DNA of 64,000 nt from Ectothiorhodospiraceae bacterium BW-2. Its GTDB lineage: Bacteria > Pseudomonadota > Gammaproteobacteria > Thiohalomonadales > Thiohalomonadaceae. This document shows, piece by piece, positions 3,217 to 62,091 of the stretch (its first letter is position 1; each line of letters begins with the position of its first letter). The notes beneath the pieces are model-generated. The model was not told where the DNA came from, did no database searches, and saw only the letters and a list, made by a program, of their open reading frames with translations. Made by a program: the position numbers and the translations under genes. The stretch lies in the NCBI GenBank assembly GCA_008375315.1, contig CP032507.1, forward strand, positions 2,221,001-2,285,000. Direction: 5' to 3'.

Positions 3217-4335
3217 ATGACCAAAAAAGCATTAATCACCGGCATCACCGGTCAAGACGGCTCCTATCTCGCCGAATTTCTACTCGAAAAAGGCTACGAA
3301 GTCCACGGCATCAAGCGCCGCGCTTCCAGCTTTAATACCCAACGGGTCGATCACATCTACCAAGACCCGCACGAACCGAATCCGAAGCTGAAACTGCACT
3401 ACGGCGACCTCTCCGATACCTCTAATCTCACCCGCATCCTTAGCGAAGTGCAACCGGACGAAGTCTATAATCTTGCGGCGCAGTCGCATGTAGCGGTATC
3501 GTTCGAATCACCGGAATACACCGCTGATGTCACTGGATTAGGCACGCTGCGCCTGCTGGAGTCGATTCGCTTTTTAGGGTTAGAGCAGAAGACCCGTTTT
3601 TATCAAGCAAGCACTTCAGAGCTGTTTGGTTTAGTACAAGAGGTACCCCAGCGCGAGACCACGCCATTCTATCCGCGTAGTCCTTATGCCGTAGCAAAGC
3701 TCTATAGCTACTGGATAACGGTTAACTATCGCGAAGCCTACGGCATGTACGCCTGCAACGGTATTCTGTTTAACCACGAATCGCCACGCAGGGGTGAGAC
3801 CTTTGTTACCCGTAAAATTACCCGCAGCCTCGCCAATATTGCCCAAGGGTTAGAGAAGAAGCTCTATCTGGGCAATATGAATGCCCTGCGCGACTGGGGA
3901 CATGCGAAAGATTATGTGCGCATGCAGTGGATGATGTTACAGCAGGATCAGCCGCAAGATTTTGTGATTGCCACCGGAGTGCAGTACTCAGTACGCCAAT
4001 TTGTCGAAATGAGTGCGCAACAGCTGGGGATTACCTTGGCGTTTACGGGTGAAGGTGTGAACGAAATCGCGACCGTCACTGCGATTGCGGGAGATAATGC
4101 CCCGGCATTAAAAGTGGGCGATACCATTGTTGCGGTCGATCCGCGCTACTTCCGTCCGACTGAAGTCGAGACCCTGCTCGGCGATCCGGCTAAGGCTAAC
4201 TCGGAACTCGGTTGGGTGCCGGAAATTACGCTACAGCAGATGGTGGAGGAGATGGTGGCGTATGATTTGGATCAGGCCAAACGTCATGCGCTATTAAAGC
4301 ATCATGGTTATGAAGTGGCGGTAACTAAGGAGTGA
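3217..4335 (+). CDS. gmd: GDP-mannose 4,6-dehydratase
   Basis: Converts GDP-D-mannose to GDP-4-keto-6-deoxymannose, the first step toward GDP-L-fucose and related sugars, in the cytoplasm. The 372-residue length is normal. An N-terminal Rossmann motif ([10 protein letters not shown]) binds NADP. The catalytic triad region is visible as STSELFG and [10 protein letters not shown] (YxxxK). [17 protein letters not shown] is the typical family block. An insertion-like stretch near residues 270-305 ([16 protein letters not shown]) occurs in several bacterial homologues. It is followed after 6 bases by a small membrane protein and then fcl, so the three are probably one transcript. Confidence 0.97.
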
Positions 4336-4341
4336 TAACCC

Positions 4342-4581
4342 ATGAGTACACTAACTTTTGATACGCATCAGTTTGTAAAAAAGTTACAGGCGGTTGGCTT
4401 TTCAGAAGAACAGGCTGAGCTCTTTGCATCAGAACAGAAAAGACTTATTGAAGAGCAGTTAGTTAGTAAAGAACACTTTGATATGAAACTCAAAGAGTTG
4501 GAGTATTCGTTAACGATTAAGTTAGGATTAATGTTGGCTGCCTCAATGGCACTTATTGTGGGTATTCTGAAAATAGCATGA
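4342..4581 (+). CDS. Small coiled-coil membrane protein (DUF1640-like)
   Basis: 79 residues. The first half has the pattern [21 protein letters not shown] seen in DUF1640/CCDC90-type proteins; a short charged coiled-coil follows, and the last 20 residues form one membrane helix ([16 protein letters not shown]). It sits between gmd and fcl and overlaps fcl by 4 bases, so the genes are coupled. No link to fucose synthesis is known to me. Larger proteins of the same general plan occur at 7312. Confidence 0.75.
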
Positions 4582-5537
4582 TACAATTGAGTGACAGAGT
4601 TTATATTGCGGGCCATCGTGGCTTAGTCGGTTCGGCAATCGTCCGTCAGTTACAACAGCGCGGTTTCACCAATCTGGTTACCCGAAGCCATAACGAACTC
4701 GACCTTACCAATCAACAGGCGGTAAACGACTTTTTTGCGACGGAACGACCCGATTATGTCATATTAGCAGCCGCTAAGGTGGGTGGGATTCATGCGAATA
4801 ACACCTATCCGGCGGAGTTTATCTATCAAAATTTGATGATAGAGGCTAATGTGATTCATGCGGCCTATACCCATCAGGTTAAACGGCTACTCTTTTTAGG
4901 TAGTACTTGTATCTATCCGCGAGCGGTGCAGCAGCCGATGCAGGAGCAGGCGCTGTTAACTGATACGCTAGAGCCGACTAATGAGCCCTATGCGATAGCA
5001 AAAATTGCCGGAATTAAGCTGTGTGAAAGTTATAACCGGCAGTATGGTACCGATTACCGCTCGGTGATGCCGACCAATCTTTATGGCATAAATGATAATT
5101 TTCATCCCGAAAATTCGCATGTCATTCCGGCTCTAATGCGCCGTTTTCATGAGGCGAAGCTGCAAAATCAGCCGGAGGTGGTGGTGTGGGGTAGTGGCAA
5201 ACCGATGCGGGAGTTTCTCTGTGTCGATGATATGGCGGCGGCGTCACTGTTTGTGCTGGAGCTAGATGAGGCAACTTATCAGGCGAATACCGAGCCGATG
5301 TTATCGCATATTAATGTCGGGACGGGTAAGGATATTACCATTCGGGAGTTAGCCGAGACGATGGCCGAGGTTGTGGGATATAAGGGGCAGGTTGTATTTG
5401 ATAGCTCTAAGCCTGATGGACCACCGCGAAAACTGATTGATGTGAGTCGATTAACGGCGATGGGGTGGCGGTATCAGATAGAGTTGAAGCAGGGATTAGC
5501 CCAGACCTATGCTTGGTATCTACAAAGTGTAGATTAA
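4578..5537 (+). CDS. fcl: GDP-L-fucose synthase
   Basis: NADPH-dependent epimerase/reductase that turns GDP-4-keto-6-deoxymannose into GDP-L-fucose. 319 residues, normal length. [11 protein letters not shown] is the nucleotide-binding loop; LGSTCIYP supplies the catalytic Ser/Cys and [13 protein letters not shown] the YxxxK pair; [21 protein letters not shown] is diagnostic. With gmd it gives a complete GDP-fucose pathway for surface glycan synthesis. Its last 31 bases are copied at 7260-7290. Confidence 0.97.
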
Positions 5538-5689
5538 GTTCTGACTAAGGGCTATCCGATGAACAAAACCAAAGTTGATGATATGTTAATTGAGATGATC
5601 TCGCCGCAGATTAAGGAGATTGAAGAGCGCTTTAGTCGCGGTGAGGGGGTAAATCGGGATGATATTAACACGCTGCTGTTAAAATCGCA
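5507..5689 (+). repeat. Left copy of 183-bp direct repeat (fcl 3' end plus start of next gene)
   Basis: This stretch spans the last codons of fcl and the first 44 codons of the next reading frame. A copy of identical length with about 8 mismatches is at 7260-7442. The pair brackets the Fic gene and a nucleotidyltransferase fragment. Confidence 0.9.
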
Positions 5690-9528: not shown

Positions 9529-9535
9529 TAAGTTG

Positions 9536-10364
9536 ATGGCGAATAAATCAGTGATAAAAGGTCACATTCAATCGATCTCAATAGAGGGATTCCGGAGCAT
9601 TCTTCAGGTTGAGCAACTTCAACTCGGTAATTTGAGTGTGCTGATTGGGGCAAATGGTGCGGGTAAATCCAATTTTATTCGGTTGTTTGAGTTAATCAGT
9701 TGGATGTTGAAAGGGAAAAAGTTACAGGAGTTTGTGATTACCCATGGCGGTGGGGATGATCAGTTTTTTATGGGGGCAAGAAAAACTCCCCGTATTCGGA
9801 TTGAGATATCTATCCAGACAAATAAGGGAGATAATGACTACCGCTTTGCATTAACACATCTGCCTGCTGGTGATAGTGTCTTGCTAACCGAAGAGGCCTA
9901 TCGTTACTCAGATAGCCAAAAACGGACTACCGCCCGCTGGACAGAACTTGCCAGTGCAAGCAAAGAGGCGCAGCTGCCAGATCAGGTGAACTCAACCGCA
10001 AAAATAGTTGTCCATTTGCTACGCAACTGCGCAACCTATCAGTTTCATGATACCTCGGCACAAGCCTCTATACATAAGCGTTGGGATGTGAACGATTTTA
10101 GCTGGCTGCGTAGTGATGGCGGTAACCTTGCTGCAGTGCTTCTACACCTGCAAGAGTGTGATCCCATGCGATATCGTCTGATTACCCGTCAGATAGAGCG
10201 CGTTCTTCCTACTTTTGATGACTTCGTACTCGTACCCGTTGCTGGTAGAGTCGAGCTGCGTTGGAAAAGTCGCCAAAGTGACAAAACTTTTGGTGCCCAC
10301 TTAACTTCCGACGGCTCTTTGCGGCTTTTCTGCCTGCTTACGCTGCTTAATCTTCCCACAGATC
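9536..10364 (+). pseudogene. AAA/SMC-like ATPase, 5' segment (IS-interrupted)
   Basis: The first 276 residues of an ABC/RecF-type ATPase. GANGAGKS is the Walker A loop near residue 40, and SDGSLRL near residue 262 looks like the signature motif. The gene is cut at codon Asp-Gln by the IS3-like element at 10365. Deleting the IS and one GATC copy joins LLNLPTD to QLPDVIFIDEPELG in frame. The restored protein has about 373 residues and pairs with a DUF4276 gene, an arrangement that resembles a split OLD-type ATPase/Toprim nuclease. A defence role is inference. Confidence 0.85.
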
Positions 10365-10444
10365 CCCTGAGTGTCAAGATACCCTGAGACCACCCCTGAT
10401 GAGAAATGAATGTAGAATCAGGGGGGCAACAGAGGAGATACACG

Positions 10445-14031: not shown

Positions 14032-14922
14032 ATGATAAAAAGCTGTTCATTCACTAATTTCGCGGCATTGCCAAGCGCTATTTGGCAATTCTCGTCGGGT
14101 GTTAATGTCATTGTGGGCGAAAACGGCTTGGGAAAATCTCACCTACTCAAAGCAATCTATGCCCTACTAAAGATCAATGAAGAGACGCAGTTAACTAAGA
14201 ACACGCTGGAAAAGAGATATGCTGAAAAACTGGTCGCTGTGATGCGTCCAGAGAGCTTGGGGCGCTTGGTTAAACGAAAACAGGGAAGAGGGCGTTGTGA
14301 GATTGCGCTAACGATGCATAATAGTCGTGGTAATGTAGCTATCGCATTTGCAAGTAACGCAAAAAGTCAGGTAGATATCGTAACACTGCCATCAGAAGAG
14401 TTAGATCATCCTACGGTATTTCTTCCAAAGCGCGAATTGATCACGCTATCTCCCTGGTTTGTGCCGCTATACGATAACTACCATCTCGAATTTGAGGAGA
14501 CTTGGCGTGATACGGTCTCTCTGTTAGGCAATCCTGCGCTAAAAGGATCCCGTGAAAAAATCGCCGCAGCATTGCTGACACCATTAGAGGAAGCGATGGG
14601 CGGAAAAGTGGTGGTTGATCAAGCCAGCGGCCGGTTTTATCTTCATATTACTGGCGAAGGTCGAATGGAGATTGGTTTAGTCGCCGAAGGGTTACGCAAA
14701 TTGGCGATGCTGGCACGGTTAATCAGTACGGGTACATTGTTAGGGCAAGGGTATCTATTCTGGGATAAGCCAGAGACCAATTTAAATCCGCGACTTATTA
14801 AATCGATTGCAGAAGTGATTGTGGCACTTGCCCATAATGGCGTGCAGATATTTATCGCCAGCCACTCGCTATTTTTATTACGCGAGATTGATATGAGTTT
14901 TGTGTCTTGCTTGGTGATATGA
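14032..14922 (+). pseudogene. AAA ATPase (AAA_21-like), 3'-truncated
   Basis: 296 residues. GENGLGKSHLL near residue 30 is Walker A; YLFWDKPETNLNP is Walker B with Lys where Glu is usual; ASHSLFLLREID is the switch-His region. Family members continue for roughly another 100-150 residues after this point. Here the frame ends within a few codons (SFVSCLVI), so a deletion has probably joined it to the next module. Loss of the catalytic Glu together with truncation suggests it is non-functional. Possibly part of an abortive-infection operon. Confidence 0.7.
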
Positions 14923-55484: not shown

Positions 55485-55512
55485 CCTAAGCGGGTAAGAG
55501 TCGGGTTGTGTG

Positions 55513-56862
55513 ATGAAACGGTGCTCCTTTTTTATCTTGCGTTACGGTCAACACCACCCCAACGCCATAAAAATTATCGATAACCTCGCCTGGCTCTTTG
55601 TTGATAAAGTGCTACGCATGGGTGTCGGTCTGCTGGTCGGCGTATGGCTGGCGCGCTATTTAGGCCCGGAGCAGTTTGGCCTGCTGAACTATGCGCTGGC
55701 ACTACTGGCGCTCTTTAGCACTGTCGCTGCGGTGGGGCTTAATCCCATCGTAGTGCGTGAAAGTGTACATCAACCTGATGCGGCACCGGTTATTCTCGGA
55801 TCTGCGCTGCTGTTACGCCTTATCGCCGGCAGTATCGCGATTATGGCGATGAATCTGACGCTGTATGCACTACGCCCCGATGACCCTTTAGCACAAATAA
55901 GTGTGCTGATTCTGAGTATGACACTGCTGTTCAGAGCCAGCGAGGTGGTACGCTACTGGTTTGAATCACAAGTACAGCTTCGTTATTGGGTTTGGGTCGA
56001 AAACAGCCTCTTTCTGCTAATGTCAGGCGTAAAAGTCGTGCTTATTCTGCATGCGGCGCCATTTATCGCCTTTATTTGGGTTATTCTGATCGAGGCAGGT
56101 CTGTTAGCCATCGGGGTAGGGTGGATCTACTGGTGCCGGACGCAGACTATCGCTTGGCGCGTTCGCTATGCCCGACTAAAGCAGCTACTGCACGACTCAT
56201 GGCTGTTTATGTTTTCAGCCATGGCAATGGTGCTCTACACGCGGATTGATCAAATTATGCTCGGTGAGATGGTCGGTAACGATGCCGTAGGGCTCTATAG
56301 TGCCGCCACCCGTATCAGCGAGGCGTGGTACTTTATTCCGGTGATTATCGTCACCTCACTCTTTCCCGCTATCTTAAAGGCCAAACAGCGGAGTGAGTCG
56401 GCCTATTACCAGCGATTACAGCAGTTAATGGATCTGGTTATCTGGCTCTCGGTTGCGGTGGCGATAGCGGTGACACTGCTGTCGGACAGGCTGATAACGG
56501 GGCTGTTTGGTGAAGCGTATCAGGCCGCTGCCGGAGTCTTAGTGATCCACATCTGGGCATCGCTGTTAATGTCGTTAGGACTGGTTGGAGCGAAATGGTT
56601 TGTCGCCGAAAACCACGCGCTGTTCAATTTTCAGCGTACTGCTGTAGGGGTGGCGCTTAATGTGCTGCTAAACTGGCTGCTCATTCCTAAATACGGTATC
56701 GATGGTGCCGCTATAGCGACGCTCATCACCCATCTTTGGGTTAATTTGCTCTATGATGGGTTACAAAAAATGACTCGGCCGCTGTTTTGGCTCAAACTAG
56801 GTGGGTTAAATCCCCTTGCCGTGATAAGGCGTTTAGTGACCCTTGCGCTTTGGCTACGCTAA
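55513..56862 (+). CDS. wzx: Wzx-type polysaccharide flippase
   Basis: 449 residues from ATG 55513, with 12-14 membrane helices. MGVGLLVGVWLARYLGPEQF and GLLNYALALLALFSTVA are the start of the Polysacc_synt family, and LYTRIDQIMLGEMVGNDAVG is the central conserved block. It moves lipid-linked repeat units to the periplasm, where the Wzy-like protein could join them. Its end carries half of the CTAACCCG palindrome seen at 28156. Confidence 0.92.
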   Translation: MKRCSFFILRYGQHHPNAIKIIDNLAWLFVDKVLRMGVGLLVGVWLARYLGPEQFGLLNYALALLALFSTVAAVGLNPIVVRESVHQPDAAPVILGSALLLRLIAGSIAIMAMNLTLYALRPDDPLAQISVLILSMTLLFRASEVVRYWFESQVQLRYWVWVENSLFLLMSGVKVVLILHAAPFIAFIWVILIEAGLLAIGVGWIYWCRTQTIAWRVRYARLKQLLHDSWLFMFSAMAMVLYTRIDQIMLGEMVGNDAVGLYSAATRISEAWYFIPVIIVTSLFPAILKAKQRSESAYYQRLQQLMDLVIWLSVAVAIAVTLLSDRLITGLFGEAYQAAAGVLVIHIWASLLMSLGLVGAKWFVAENHALFNFQRTAVGVALNVLLNWLLIPKYGIDGAAIATLITHLWVNLLYDGLQKMTRPLFWLKLGGLNPLAVIRRLVTLALWLR

Positions 56863-57089
56863 CCCGACATGATTATGCCATGGTTTTTTTGAAAAATTGC
56901 CCGGCCGCTTGTCGGGCTGTGTAGCTAAGGCAGCGGGAATCACTGGCGGTTGAAAAAATCACTGGACAACATTGGGATGGGCCTGTTATTTTTGCTCGGG
57001 TTTGAACAAAAAAGAGAGCGGCCGCTAAAGTCGGCTTCAATTGTTATATGGATAGCGCATGAATTGTCCGGCTGAAGACGACACAGCAG

Positions 57090-57101
57090 GGCGGTAGCGT
57101 G
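57090..57101 (+). promoter_or_regulatory. ops-like element GGCGGTAGCGTG
   Basis: The 12-mer equals the core of the ops site that recruits RfaH to polysaccharide operons in enterobacteria. It lies 23 bases before the EPS regulator gene, in a 262-base leader without genes (56863-57124). No rfaH homologue is in the window. Confidence 0.65.
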
Positions 57102-57124: not shown

Positions 57125-57502
57125 ATGAATCGTAGCGTAGCAGATACTCCTCCCCTTTCCCGTCAGGCACGGTTACAGGCTGATACCTATTTTCGAGTAA
57201 TGCATCTGTTAGAGCAGCAGCCTGATCTGACGCAGAGAGAGTTAGCTCAGCATCTTGATGTCAGTGTCGGAGCGCTTAATTATTGCCTGAAAGCATTGAA
57301 AGAGAAGGGTTGGGTAAAGATGCAAAATTTTGCTCACTCTAAAAACAAGTTTGGCTATATCTATGTCCTGACACCAGCCGGTTTAGTCCATAAATCATCA
57401 TTAGCTAAAGCCTTTTTAAAGCGAAAAATTGCTGAATATGAAGCCTTAAGAGTAGAGATAGAGGCCTTAAAATCAGATATTGAATGGTGTGATAATCATT
57501 AA
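57125..57502 (+). CDS. EPS-associated MarR-family regulator
   Basis: 125 residues. ADTYFRVMHLLEQQPDLTQR then ELAQHLDVSVGALNYCLKAL is a winged-helix of the 'MarR family EPS-associated transcriptional regulator' type; GYIYVLTPAGLVHKSSL and a C-terminal coiled-coil follow. Members sit at the head of exopolysaccharide clusters. Here it precedes the nucleotide-sugar genes and follows an ops-like site. Confidence 0.93.
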   Translation: MNRSVADTPPLSRQARLQADTYFRVMHLLEQQPDLTQRELAQHLDVSVGALNYCLKALKEKGWVKMQNFAHSKNKFGYIYVLTPAGLVHKSSLAKAFLKRKIAEYEALRVEIEALKSDIEWCDNH

Positions 57503-57678: not shown

Positions 57679-58338
57679 ATGAAAGTATTAGTGACGGGTG
57701 CGGCAGGTTTTATTGGTTCTGCGCTGACTTTACGGTTATTAGAGCGCGGTGATACGGTCGTTGGTATTGATAATCATAACGACTATTACGATCCAAAACT
57801 TAAACAAGATCGCCTGGCTCGGCAAATTGATCATATTAACTACACGCACATTCGTGGTGATATTGCTGATCGGCAAACTATGGAAACTCTGTTTACAGAA
57901 CAGAAACCACAGCGCGTCGTCAATCTGGCAGCCCAGGCAGGGGTGCGCTACTCACTTGAAAATCCGTTGGCTTATATCGACAGTAATTTGGTCGGTTTTG
58001 GTCATATCCTTGAGGGGTGTCGTCATAGACCAGCAACAGCCTATCCGGACTGGCAGAGTGATAATCCCGATTCCGGCACCAGCTATGCTCCATGGCGAAT
58101 CTATAATATTGGCAGTAATAACCCGGAATCTCTAAATACCTACATTGAAACGCTGGAGAATTTTTTGGGTAAAACAGCACAAAAAGAGCTGTTGCCACTG
58201 CAACCTGGCGATGTACCCGATACCTATGCCGATGTCGACGATCTGATTCGGGATATTGGTTACAAACCTGATACACCTTTAGAGCAGGGTATGTAGGCAT
58301 TTATTGAGTGGTTTAGAGCTTACTACTCAGAAAAATAG
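57679..58338 (+). pseudogene. UDP-glucuronate 4-epimerase, internally deleted
   Basis: TGAAGFIGSALTLRLLERGD, HNDYYDPKLKQDRL and NLAAQAGVRYSLENPLAYID are typical of the 335-residue epimerase. After GHILEGCRH about 130 residues are missing, including the catalytic Ser and YxxxK, and the sequence resumes at AYPDWQSDNPD. Near the end a TAG (58294-58296) interrupts EQGM-AFIEWFRAYYSEK. Two separate lesions make it inactive. Confidence 0.88.
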
Positions 58339-58353
58339 AAAACTTGTAAAAAT

Positions 58354-59126
58354 ATGAAAGCCGTTATTCTGGCGGGTGGATTGGGTACCCGCGTTGCCGA
58401 AGAGACCCATCTCAAACCTAAACCGATGATCGAAATTGGCGGCCGTCCGATCCTATGGCACATTATGAAAATTTACTCCGCCCACGGGGTCAACGACTTT
58501 ATCATCTGCTGTGGCTATATGGGCTATGTGATTAAAGGGTATTTTGCGAACTACTTTCTGCACATGTCCGATGTCACCTTCTGTATGCGCACCAACCAAA
58601 TGGAGGTGCATAATAAACGCGCCGAACCGTGGCGGGTGACGCTGATTGATACCGGCGATAACACCCTCACCGGTAGCCGGTTAAAACGGGTTGCCGACTA
58701 TGTACAAGACGAAGAGGCCTTTTGCTTTACCTATGGCGATGGTGTCGCAGATGTCGATATCACCGCACCCATCGCCTTTCATCAACAGCACGGTAAACAG
58801 GCTACGGTAACGGCCGTACAACCCCTTGGGCGTTATGGCGCACTGGTCAGAACGGGGAATAGCGTAAGCGGATTTCAGGAAAAACCCCAAGTGACGGAGC
58901 ATGGATTAACGGGGGATTTTTTGTACTGCATCCTGCGGTACTAAGCAAAATTCCCCATGAAAACTGCTCATGGGAAGGGGAGCCGCTGACCTAGCTGGCA
59001 GCTCAAAGCGAACTGGAGGCGTTTGAACGTCGGGGCTTTTGGCAACCGATGGATACCTTGCGTGATAAAAATCACCTTGAAGCGTTGTGGCAGAGTGGGC
59101 GTGCGCCGTGGAAGTGTTGGGAATGA
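58354..59126 (+). pseudogene. rfbF: Glucose-1-phosphate cytidylyltransferase, frameshifted
   Basis: KAVILAGGLGTRVAEETHLK, KPMIEIGGRPILWHIMKIYS and FCFTYGDGVADVDI are those of RfbF, which makes CDP-glucose. One base is missing near 58902; the other frame then gives WINGGFFVLHPAVLSKIP and later [18 protein letters not shown] with an in-frame TAG at 58992-58994. The reading frame ends as TGA overlapping the rfbG start. Broken by a frameshift and a nonsense codon. Confidence 0.9.
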
Positions 59127-60305
59127 AACTATTTAACAGCCTCTATGCTGGAAAAAGGGTATTAATTACCGGTCATACCGGCTTTAAGGGAAGTTGGCTA
59201 ACTTTATGGCTACAACAGCTCGGTGCCCGAGTTGTAACCGTTCACTCTCCCTCCTTAATCTCCCTCTCCCGGCGGGAGAGGGTTGGGGTGAGGGGTAAAA
59301 TTTAGCGGGGAGAGTGAACGGTTACCCCGAGTTTACGGTATCTCGCTGGAGCCTGAAACCGCCCCTAACCACTGCTCACTACTGGACTTAAATATAACTG
59401 CTGATTATCGCCTCGATATTCGCAACTACGACAGGTTAGCCAAAGCGGTCTCAGCGGCACAACCCGATATTGTGTTTCATCTGGCAGCGCAGCCACTGGT
59501 GCGGAGATCATATCGCCAACCACTGGAGACCTGGTCCACCAATGTCATGGGAACGGCAAATGTTTTAGAGGCGTGTCGCCATACGCCATCAGTGCAGGCA
59601 ATCGTTACGATAACCACCGATAAGTGTTATGCCAATCAGGAGTGGTCATGGGGTTATCGCGAAATTGACCAATTAGGCGGGCATGACCCCTATAGCGCAT
59701 CCAAAGCCGGTGCCGAATTAGTAGCTGCAAGTTACCGTTCCGCCTATTTTAACCAATCGGGTCAGCCCCTATTGGCCACAGCCCGTGCGGGTAATGTCAT
59801 TGGCGGTGGCGACTGGTCAGAAGATCGACTGATACCCGATCTGATTCGTGCCATTGCATCAAAACAGATACTGGAAATTCGCTCACCCCAAGCGACTCGC
59901 CCTTGGCAACATGTACTTGAGTCGTTAAGTGGTTATCTATTGTTGGGGCAGCAACTTTTAGAGGGCAAAGCCGGTTATACTGAAGCATGGAACTTTGGTC
60001 CTGAACCGGATGGTAATCGCAAAGTCATTGAAATATTAACCCATATGCAGCAGCATTGGTCAGCAGTAGAGTGGCAAACGGCAGAGCAACCCCAACCGCA
60101 CGAGGCGAACCTACTCTATCTTGATAGTGCCAAAGCGCGAACTAAACTGAACTGGCAACCGGTCTGGACATTAGAGCAGGCTCTGGAAAAGACAGTAGCG
60201 TGGTATCGAAATTGGATGGAAGAAGATTATATTTTGTCAAAGCAACAACTGAATGACTATATCCGTCAGGCTAATCAGAATAGAGCTGTCTGGATAACTG
60301 CATAA
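59123..60305 (+). pseudogene. rfbG: CDP-glucose 4,6-dehydratase, disrupted by a miniature element
   Basis: ATG 59123. RVLITGHTGFKGSWLTLWLQ is the NAD loop; HLAAQPLVRRSY, ITTDKCYANQEWSWGYRE and YSASKAGAELV (YxxxK) are typical. The 92-bp element at 59234-59325 and its 8-base duplication add 100 bases, which shifts the frame to a stop at 59303-59305. Without them GARV joins YGISLEPETAPN in frame. The enzyme makes CDP-4-keto-6-deoxyglucose from the RfbF product. The 3' part from 59334 is otherwise intact. Confidence 0.93.
59234..59325 (+). mobile_element. 92-bp IS66-ended MITE in rfbG
   Basis: Perfect 18-bp inverted ends GTAACCGTTCACTCTCCC, and an 8-base duplication CCCGAGTT (59226-59233 and 59326-59333). 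The outer 11 bases equal those of the IS66-type element at 19864. The interior is a CTCTCCCGGCGGGAGAG palindrome. Length, ends and duplication fit a non-autonomous element moved by that transposase. Confidence 0.9.
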
Positions 60306-60867: not shown

Positions 60868-62091
60868 ATGAACTGCCGCCACTGCCACACACCCCTACAA
60901 CATACATTTATCGATCTGGGCTTTGCGCCGCCCTCTAATGCCTATCTGACCCAATCCGATTTATCAAAACCCGAAAAATATTATCCGCTAAAAGTGATGG
61001 TGTGCAATCACTGCTGGCTAGTCCAAACCGAAGACTATACCCAAGCCGATGAACTGTTTAATGCCGAGTATGCGTACTTCTCCAGTACATCAACCGGCTG
61101 GTTGAAGCATGCTAAAGCGTATGCCGAAAAGATGACAACGCTACTCCAACTCAATCAGCAGAGTCTGGTGATTGAAGTGGCTTCGAATGACGGTTATTTA
61201 CTGAAAAATTTCGTTGAAAACAGCATACCCTGTCTCGGCATCGAACCGACAGATAGCACTGCCGATGCGGCTGAAAAGCTGGGTATACCGGTATTACGGC
61301 ACTTTTTTGGTGAAAAATTAGCCAAGCAGTTAGCCAACGAAGGTAAACAGGCTGATCTCATCGCCGGTAATAATGTCTATGCCCATGTGCCGGACATTAA
61401 TGACTTTACCAAGGGACTTAAAGCCGGATTAAAACCAACGGGCACGATTACACTGGAATTTCCGCATTTGATGCAACTGATTGCTCATAACCAGTTCGAT
61501 ACCATCTATCATGAGCACTTCTCCTACTTATCGTTACAAACCGTCAGTCAGATTTTTCAGAGTGTTGGATTACGCATTTGGGATGTCGAACAGTTATCAA
61601 CCCACGGTGGCAGCCTGAGAATCTATGGTTGCCACGATGAAGATAAGCGTGCAACGACAGCTGCGGTAAACGAACTGTTAGCACAAGAGATCCAAAGTAG
61701 CTTACAGCAAGTCACTACCTATACCCAATTTCAACAGAACGCAGATCGGGTAAAAAATGATCTACTACAGTTTCTAATTGAACAGAAAGGGGCGGGTAAA
61801 ACGGTTGCGGCTTATGGAGCTGCGGCAAAAGGCAATACCCTATTAAACTATGGTGGTGTAAAGCCCGATCGACTCCCGTTTGTCTGCGATGCAGCCCAAG
61901 CTAAACAGGGTAAATATATGCCAGGAAGCCACATACCCATTTTAGCGCCAGAGGCGATTCAGCAAGCAAAGCCCGATTTTATTCTGATTTTGCCGTGGAA
62001 CATTGCTCCGGAAGTACAAAAGCAGCTAACCTATATTCGTGAATGGGGTGGAAGGTTTGTAGTAGCCGTGCCAATGATACAGCAAAATTAA
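60868..62091 (+). CDS. Sugar C-methyltransferase (SAM-dependent)
   Basis: 407 residues. The N-terminal zinc-binding domain has CRHC and CNHC pairs; IEVASNDGYLLKNFVENSIP binds SAM, and YHEHFSYLSLQTVSQIFQS then STHGGSLRIYG with VAAYGAAAKGNTLLNYGG are the TylC3/NovU type blocks. It transfers methyl to C3 of a keto-sugar nucleotide. Placed after rfbFG it should act on a CDP-4-keto sugar, whose supply here is broken. Confidence 0.9.
   Translation: MNCRHCHTPLQHTFIDLGFAPPSNAYLTQSDLSKPEKYYPLKVMVCNHCWLVQTEDYTQADELFNAEYAYFSSTSTGWLKHAKAYAEKMTTLLQLNQQSLVIEVASNDGYLLKNFVENSIPCLGIEPTDSTADAAEKLGIPVLRHFFGEKLAKQLANEGKQADLIAGNNVYAHVPDINDFTKGLKAGLKPTGTITLEFPHLMQLIAHNQFDTIYHEHFSYLSLQTVSQIFQSVGLRIWDVEQLSTHGGSLRIYGCHDEDKRATTAAVNELLAQEIQSSLQQVTTYTQFQQNADRVKNDLLQFLIEQKGAGKTVAAYGAAAKGNTLLNYGGVKPDRLPFVCDAAQAKQGKYMPGSHIPILAPEAIQQAKPDFILILPWNIAPEVQKQLTYIREWGGRFVVAVPMIQQN

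What the first reader, a model, noticed from the sequence alone, without database searches (positions are those of the whole stretch)
57090..57101. ops-like element ahead of the EPS regulator
GGCGGTAGCGTG equals the enterobacterial ops core that recruits RfaH. It lies in a long leader immediately before a MarR-type EPS regulator. An RfaH-type anti-termination control of this cluster would be expected.
Basis: partly seen in the sequence, partly recalled or inferred. Interest (0 to 1): 0.5.

Follow-up and report, generated by a model that had tools for sequence, protein, structure and literature searches.

The report
RfaH landing site before polysaccharide regulator
A 12-letter DNA signal that in E. 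coli lets the helper protein RfaH board RNA polymerase really sits before a polysaccharide-cluster regulator gene here; the genome has an RfaH gene and more such signals, and the same arrangement recurs in dozens of other proteobacteria.

Summary
The genome encodes an RfaH over the curated cut-offs. It also holds further ops sites: five exact and two near ones in a block 77-120 kb upstream, and one before a pseudaminic-acid gene run (pseC, pseB, pseF).

The leader is organised: sigma-70-like promoter, an operator-like palindrome near the predicted start, ops, then marR_EPS (TIGR04176). This recurs elsewhere. An ops with at most one mismatch lies within 500 nt upstream of marR_EPS in 13 of 45 and 30 of 79 genes from two largely separate sets. 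RfaH is present in 37 of 41 searched genomes with such an ops and 24 of 81 without. In eight RfaH genomes this locus holds the only exact ops.

Best reading: a MarR-repressed promoter followed by an RfaH loading site. Caveats: this RfaH lacks three of the four E. coli side chains that touch ops; genes downstream of this copy are decayed; nothing was measured. My searches of the paper library found no report of the marR_EPS-ops pairing. New variant of a known kind.

The parts
56963..56992 (+). sigma-70-like promoter: TGGACA, 18-nt spacer, TATTTT, with TG before the second hexamer
   Evidence: found by the promoter scan, one of 3 found where shuffles give 1.1 on average; the paralogous leaders mostly have GCGACA and TATACT at the same place relative to the palindrome (read by eye). 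Consensus match only.
56994..57007 (.). operator-like palindrome GCTCGGGTTTGAAC, one mismatch from GTTC-N6-GAAC, near the predicted transcription start
   Evidence: the seven paralogous leaders have GTTCGGCAATGAAC or close variants at the same place; in other genomes GTTC-N7-GAAC upstream of marR_EPS in 40 of 45, and the N6 or N7 form in 36 of 79
57071..57087 (+). small inverted repeat GCTG (9-nt loop AAGACGACA) CAGC ending 2 nt before ops
   Evidence: fold; four pairs at this geometry in 23 of 42 distinct leaders; energy of the window copy is not unusual (z -0.94)
57090..57101 (+). ops element GGCGGTAGCGTG, proposed RfaH recruitment site
57125..57502 (+). MarR-family EPS-associated regulator (TIGR04176), intact, proposed autorepressor
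   Evidence: 144.4 bits, cut-off 88
55510..56862 (+). wzx-like flippase, last gene before the leader
   Evidence: best model Wzx_EPS, E 2.2e-21, well under its curated cut-off
57679..58296 (+). nucleotide-sugar epimerase/dehydratase with an internal gap of about 118 residues (decayed)
   Evidence: two aligned stretches to 5u4q, residues 4-120 and 239-323
58354..58944 (+). glucose-1-phosphate cytidylyltransferase, truncated
   Evidence: matches model positions 1-189 of 255
59472..60305 (+). CDP-glucose 4,6-dehydratase lacking its N-terminal part
   Evidence: matches model positions 81-351 of 352
60868..62091 (+). C-methyltransferase (Methyltransf_13/14)

Best explanation
A true ops element in the transcribed leader of an EPS-locus operon. 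Transcription starts at a sigma-70-like promoter beside an operator for the MarR_EPS protein, which is encoded by the first gene and represses its own promoter. When repression is lifted, RNA polymerase pauses about 90 nt later at ops, exposing it in the non-template strand. The genome's RfaH loads there, excludes NusG, and carries polymerase (and a ribosome) through the long, Rho-prone glycan genes. MarR_EPS gates initiation and RfaH gates elongation. Shown: sequences, layout, the RfaH gene, further ops sites, recurrence and co-occurrence across genomes. Inferred: binding, pausing, direction of regulation, and the benefit to the operon (the RfaH steps are those known from E. coli). For this copy the downstream glycan genes are partly decayed, so the switch may now drive little besides marR_EPS.
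For: RfaH over the equivalog cut-offs. Of 45 marR_EPS upstream regions from other genomes, 10 have exact ops and 3 one mismatch; antisense 0 exact and 1 with one mismatch; shuffles average 0.045 regions at one mismatch and none exact. Second set: 23 exact and 7 with one mismatch of 79, antisense 0, downstream (400-900) 0 of 74, further upstream (-1500 to -1000) 1 exact and 1 with one mismatch of 74; with no motif given, GCGGTAGC is the top enriched 8-mer (45 of 79 against 1 of 74). RfaH with ops against without: 12 of 13 against 8 of 32; 25 of 28 against 16 of 49; pooled 37 of 41 against 24 of 81, p 1.3e-10. ops between -500 and +1200 of marR_EPS: 17 of 20 RfaH genomes, 1 of 25 others. In G143, G259, G202, G103, G321, G229, G173 and G268 the only exact ops of the genome is the one at this locus. 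The palindrome lies 125-437 nt before the model start of the gene with ops (n 12) and 23-142 nt without (n 30). A further ops precedes a pse gene run in the own genome.
Against: The own RfaH has N, Q and F at E. coli H20, R23 and R73; of the four direct contacts only K10 is kept. The tree-aware test had only 3-5 well-supported pairs and is not significant, so shared descent is not excluded as a source of part of the association. Four ops-bearing genomes show no RfaH: G212, L074, L123, L143. 24 RfaH genomes lack ops within 500 nt upstream, 8 in the first set and 16 in the second. The palindrome in its N6 or N7 form is missing from 43 of 79 upstream regions of the second set. Shine-Dalgarno strength does not differ between leaders with and without ops (p 0.18). 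The downstream epimerase is broken.
Confidence: 0.75

Rival explanations
1. Relic: the site was an RfaH target, but this copy no longer matters because the genes behind it have decayed; live control lies at the paralogous leaders and the pse gene run.
For: Internal gap in the epimerase, truncated cytidylyltransferase and dehydratase, transposase-like genes nearby (named by eye).
Against: ops is perfect, marR_EPS is intact, the promoter and palindrome positions are kept, and a C-methyltransferase with its domains complete lies further down.
Confidence: 0.15
2. ops here is only a strong consensus pause used without RfaH, for example to time translation or MarR binding.
For: The central ops bases are not needed for pausing, only for RfaH (passages of PMC5995543), so pausing can exist alone; the own RfaH lacks three contact residues.
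Against: Those central bases are kept exactly, and ops tracks RfaH presence.
Confidence: 0.06
3. The conserved block around ops is a DNA site for another regulator (a second MarR site or the inverted repeat), not an RfaH site.
For: An inverted repeat ends 1-2 nt before ops in 23 of 42 leaders.
Against: ops occurs without marR_EPS before the pse gene run and after rfaH in several genomes; 19 of 42 leaders keep ops without four pairs at this geometry.
Confidence: 0.03
4. Chance match.
For: Some exact copies in this genome are inside coding sequence.
Against: Expected 0.0047 per window; recurrence at the same place in two sets.
Confidence: 0.01

Closest known systems
E. coli RfaH-ops control (JUMPstart leaders of capsule and O-antigen operons)
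   Same: Identical 12-nt ops in a leader before glycan genes; RfaH gene elsewhere in the genome; E48 and R138 of the autoinhibition interface kept.
   Different: First gene is marR_EPS behind a palindrome-bearing promoter; the leader matches the JUMPstart model only at its two ends (Rfam RF01707 16.4 bits against 35); RfaH has N, Q and F at H20, R23 and R73.
RfaH cluster CL4 of Wang et al. 2020 (PMC7593976; section 11 and passages read)
   Same: That paper notes that CL4 RfaH genes sit next to an HTH regulator; here rfaH directly follows marR_EPS in several genomes. That this HTH gene is marR_EPS is my inference.
   Different: In the window genome rfaH is unlinked. The parts of that paper that I read do not describe ops or an operator before the HTH gene.
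MarR_EPS family TIGR04176
   Same: Family member over the cut-off, at a glycan locus.
   Different: The accession occurs in no paper of the library; two papers hold the family's name once each (listing, not opened).
UpxY/LoaP-type NusG paralogues
   Same: NusG paralogue devoted to long surface-glycan or metabolite operons (recalled, and passages of PMC7593976).
   Different: The own RfaH scores below the cut-offs of both models (82.6 against 100; 59.6 against 125) and is not encoded at the target locus.

Membership tests
ops element (RfaH recruitment site) | 12-nt GGCGGTAGCGTG | tested here: met
ops element (RfaH recruitment site) | lies in a transcribed leader, downstream of a promoter and before the operon | tested here: inconclusive
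   promoter-like hexamers 56963-56992 and matching paralogous leaders; no transcript data
ops element (RfaH recruitment site) | RfaH encoded in the same genome | tested here: met
ops element (RfaH recruitment site) | pausing and RfaH loading at the site | not testable with these tools
   needs in vitro transcription or a reporter
RfaH (TIGR01955) | score over the equivalog cut-off | tested here: met
   165.3 against 144.5 bits
RfaH (TIGR01955) | ops-contacting side chains K10, H20, R23, R73 of E. coli RfaH | tested here: not met
   own RfaH K, N, Q, F; in the 25 RfaHs of ops-bearing genomes that I had in hand K10 25, H20 1, R23 15, R73 4
RfaH (TIGR01955) | interdomain salt bridge E48-R138 (autoinhibition) | tested here: met
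   E and R in own RfaH; 24 and 25 of 25; residues only, not the bridge itself
RfaH (TIGR01955) | alpha-helical C-terminal hairpin in the free state | not tested
JUMPstart RNA (RF01707) | match at the gathering score | tested here: not met
   16.4 bits against 35; none at gathering in 18 sources, the window among them
MarR_EPS (TIGR04176) | score over the equivalog cut-off | tested here: met
   144.4 against 88 bits
MarR_EPS (TIGR04176) | own promoter carries the palindrome (proposed here, not an established feature) | tested here: inconclusive
   one mismatch and 6-nt spacer in the window, GTTC-N6-GAAC in the seven paralogous leaders

The most novel reading that the evidence does not exclude
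Two bold readings stay open. (1) The promoter-palindrome-ops module is a portable cassette: near-identical copies stand at seven places in a 43-kb block, and a diverged one is in the window, before marR_EPS copies or other cargo. One copy heads a same-strand run marR_EPS, small coiled-coil gene, DRT1a reverse transcriptase-nitrilase, PtuA-like ATPase. Surface-glycan and anti-phage modules would then share one RfaH/MarR switch. (2) ops is read by a second protein code: RfaHs with N/Q at 20 and mostly L/F at 73, with R70 and S71 nearly fixed, keep the same DNA word that E. coli RfaH reads with H20 and R73, so ops recognition would be older than R73.
Probability: 0.25. Interest if true: 0.75.

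Novelty: new variant of a known kind. Interest (0 to 1): 0.5.

Why it matters
Detailed RfaH recruitment is known only for E. coli; the 2020 survey says so in the section I read. The marR_EPS-ops pairing gives many genomes in which a target site of RfaH can be named from sequence alone, eight of them with one single exact ops, at this locus. It also shows the same DNA word kept beside RfaHs that lack E. coli contact residues, which makes it testable how ops recognition arose, and it points to a two-step (initiation and elongation) control of exopolysaccharide loci.

Tried and rejected
Genome-wide counting of ops with one mismatch: uninformative, 52 against 54 in the reversed control. JUMPstart as family: rejected. 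RNA hairpin before ops as a conserved pause hairpin: 23 of 42 leaders have 4 pairs with a 9-nt loop, against a mean of 10.7 and at most 17 in 2000 permutations of the 3' arms, but RNAalifold finds no better energy than with shuffled columns and the window copy is not unusually stable. I keep it as a weak, possibly lineage-specific feature. One of the three folds (L125) was taken with wrong coordinates, missed the 5' arm, and is not used. Weak Shine-Dalgarno as a sign of RfaH-loaded ribosomes: no difference. A general -10 box upstream of the palindrome across genomes: no clear common position. Tree-aware association: direction consistent, too few supported pairs. In one search the genomes without ops were first a chosen 21, all lacking the GCGGTAG core; that gave 1 of 21 (p 1.2e-9), which flattered the association, so I searched the other 28, and the full figure is 16 of 49. 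RfaH presence was counted at 140 bits or more in the first set (18 of 45 genomes over the curated cut-off, and G268 and G173 just under it) and at about 95 bits or more in the second (the next lower scores, mostly NusG, are at most about 65); counting G160 and G367 of the first set too gives pooled p 5e-10. One ops-bearing genome without RfaH shows no NusG either, so it is probably incomplete (G401). The GCGGTAGC count of the second set includes chance cases, by eye a tRNA gene in L105. L118 is the same record as L070: it is in the 79 but not in the RfaH counts; L142 had no upstream DNA and L097 was not held. A search of phage records with the own RfaH gave four weak matches, three of them in Salmonella records, and was not pursued.

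Full report
Observation. GGCGGTAGCGTG is at 57090-57101 on the + strand, once in the window, with 0.0047 copies expected. Twenty-three nucleotides later starts a 125-aa protein that scores 144.4 bits against TIGR04176 (MarR_EPS; cut-off 88).

The genome. The window is part of a 4.07-Mb contig. It has nusG (over the TIGR00922 cut-off), by eye beside ribosomal-protein, secE and tuf genes, and a second NusG-family gene at about 3014972-3015481 that passes both NCBIfam RfaH cut-offs. Eleven exact ops words occur. Five carry one common leader in a block 77-120 kb upstream of the window copy, and two more leaders there carry near-ops words (AGCGGTAGCGTG, GACGGTAGCGTA). Four of the seven head an intact or truncated marR_EPS; the other three head other sequence, one of them with a marR_EPS remnant about 2 kb further on. 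Another exact ops lies about 230 nt before pseC, at the head of a - strand run of genes that includes pseB and pseF; all three are over their equivalog cut-offs. Whether that run is one operon is not known. So RfaH here has candidate targets besides the window copy. Of the other four exact words three lie within open reading frames and one (625169) in a short frame that looks like part of a decayed gene.

Leader anatomy. The promoter scan finds TGGACA-18-TATTTT at 56963-56992. The paralogous leaders mostly have GCGACA and TATACT, and both types are followed at once by a palindrome: GTTCGGCAATGAAC or close variants in the paralogues, GCTCGGGTTTGAAC in the window. In 45 marR_EPS loci from other genomes (all over-cut-off hits of those two searches outside the own genome) the exact form GTTC-N7-GAAC occurs upstream in 40. 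In the second set it occurs in 18 of 79 and the 6-nt-spacer form in another 18, so 43 have neither. In the first set the palindrome is close to the gene where there is no ops (23-142 nt before the model start, median 35.5, n = 30) and far where ops is present (125-437 nt, median 257.5, n = 12). I read it as the autorepressor site; no binding was tested.

Recurrence of ops. First set: 10 of 45 exact and 3 of 45 with one mismatch within 500 nt upstream. Controls: antisense 0 exact and 1 with one mismatch; four stretches further upstream none at one mismatch or less; five stretches downstream 0-2 exact; shuffles 0.045 regions per 45 at one mismatch and none exact. The downstream exact ones include the words after rfaH described below. 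Second set, 80 named loci from GTDB contigs (the best 80 of 555), 79 with upstream DNA, one of them the same record as a first-set locus: 23 exact, 7 with one mismatch; antisense none; 400-900 nt downstream none of 74; 1000-1500 nt upstream 1 exact and 1 with one mismatch of 74. An 8-mer count that was told nothing about ops puts GCGGTAGC first (45 of 79 against 1 of 74).

Link with RfaH. First set: RfaH in 12 of 13 genomes with ops and in 8 of 32 without (p 4e-5). In five of those eight an exact ops lies 641-1058 nt after the start of the marR_EPS match, in four of them just after rfaH. Counting ops from -500 to +1200: 17 of 20 RfaH genomes, 1 of 25 others (p 1.7e-8). Second set: 25 of 28 with ops, 16 of 49 without (p 1.2e-6). 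Pooled: 37 of 41 and 24 of 81 (p 1.3e-10). In eight RfaH genomes (G143, G259, G202, G103, G321, G229, G173, G268) the only exact ops of the genome is the one at this locus; the RfaH scores of G173 and G268 lie just under the curated cut-off. Relatedness is not removed from these p-values: on well-supported branches only 3-5 independent pairs exist, consistent in direction but not significant.

The RfaH side. In E. coli RfaH the side chains K10, H20, R23 and R73 touch ops (PMC5995543, passages read). The own RfaH has K, N, Q and F. I had the RfaH sequence for 25 of the 38 RfaH-bearing genomes with ops before marR_EPS (the own one, 12 of the first set, 12 of the second). In these K10 is kept in 25, H20 in 1, R23 in 15, R73 in 4, and none has both H20 and R73, while R is found at position 70 (N in E. 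coli) in 24, and Q24 and T72 in 25. PMC7593976 (section 11 and passages read) says that R73 arose late. Either ops is read by another residue set in these proteins or binding is weaker; the exact keeping of the ops word argues for the former.

What this copy drives. Behind marR_EPS come an epimerase lacking about 118 residues, a truncated cytidylyltransferase and an N-terminally cut CDP-glucose dehydratase, then an intact-looking C-methyltransferase. So the switch looks intact but its cargo is decaying. I put 0.15 on this copy being a relic.

What I could not support. The element is not a JUMPstart RNA by Rfam. A small inverted repeat ending 1-2 nt before ops recurs in 23 of 42 leaders, beyond permutation of its arms, but consensus folding does not back it. 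Shine-Dalgarno strength does not differ.

Literature. Searches for the EPS-associated MarR regulator, TIGR04176, RfaH with ops element and MarR, MarR with RfaH and exopolysaccharide, operon polarity suppressor with MarR family, and RfaH with betaproteobacteria and ops listed no paper that by title or abstract pairs this regulator with ops. Most of the listed papers were not opened, and subscription journals are mostly not in that library. PMC7593976 reports that one RfaH cluster lies next to an HTH regulator and does not hold the word MarR; nor does PMC13015549 (passages). Of PMC2864571 I saw passages on JUMPstart.

Verdict. It is a new variant of RfaH-ops control, joined to a MarR_EPS gene that is probably an autorepressor.

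Noticed in passing
L019:353-4276 and 4335-5558 (genome about 2185353-2190558): DRT1a reverse transcriptase-nitrilase (1382 bits, PADLOC) and a PtuA-like ATPase lie in one same-strand run behind the ops-marR_EPS leader at 2184542: a possible RfaH-driven defence operon.
   Followed up: partly
L020:2493-4687; window 9533-10387 and 14032-14922: NsnA and NsnB homologues, a HEC-01A-like and a HEC-02-like protein among the glycan genes and transposase-like genes: the glycan region may double as a defence island.
   Followed up: no
genome 2158300-2201460 (L017-L019): About 100 bp of promoter, palindrome and ops is repeated seven times; in three places it heads something other than marR_EPS. Duplicated or mobile leader module.
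   Followed up: partly
window 59223-59312: By eye: a MITE/REP-like insert with inverted ends (GTAACCGTTCACTCTCCC ... GGGAGAGTGAACGGTTAC) where the CDP-glucose dehydratase gene is broken.
   Followed up: no
L086, L096, L111, L113, L122, L129, L130, L136, L150, L152 (upstream of marR_EPS): Variant word TGCGGTAGCCTG at the ops place; 7 of these 10 genomes have an RfaH: perhaps an ops dialect.
   Followed up: partly
L066, L067, L068 (G160, G367, G300): Small genomes with a low-scoring RfaH-like gene (78-102 bits) about 0.2-1.2 kb before marR_EPS and no ops upstream; perhaps an ops-independent form acting in cis.
   Followed up: no
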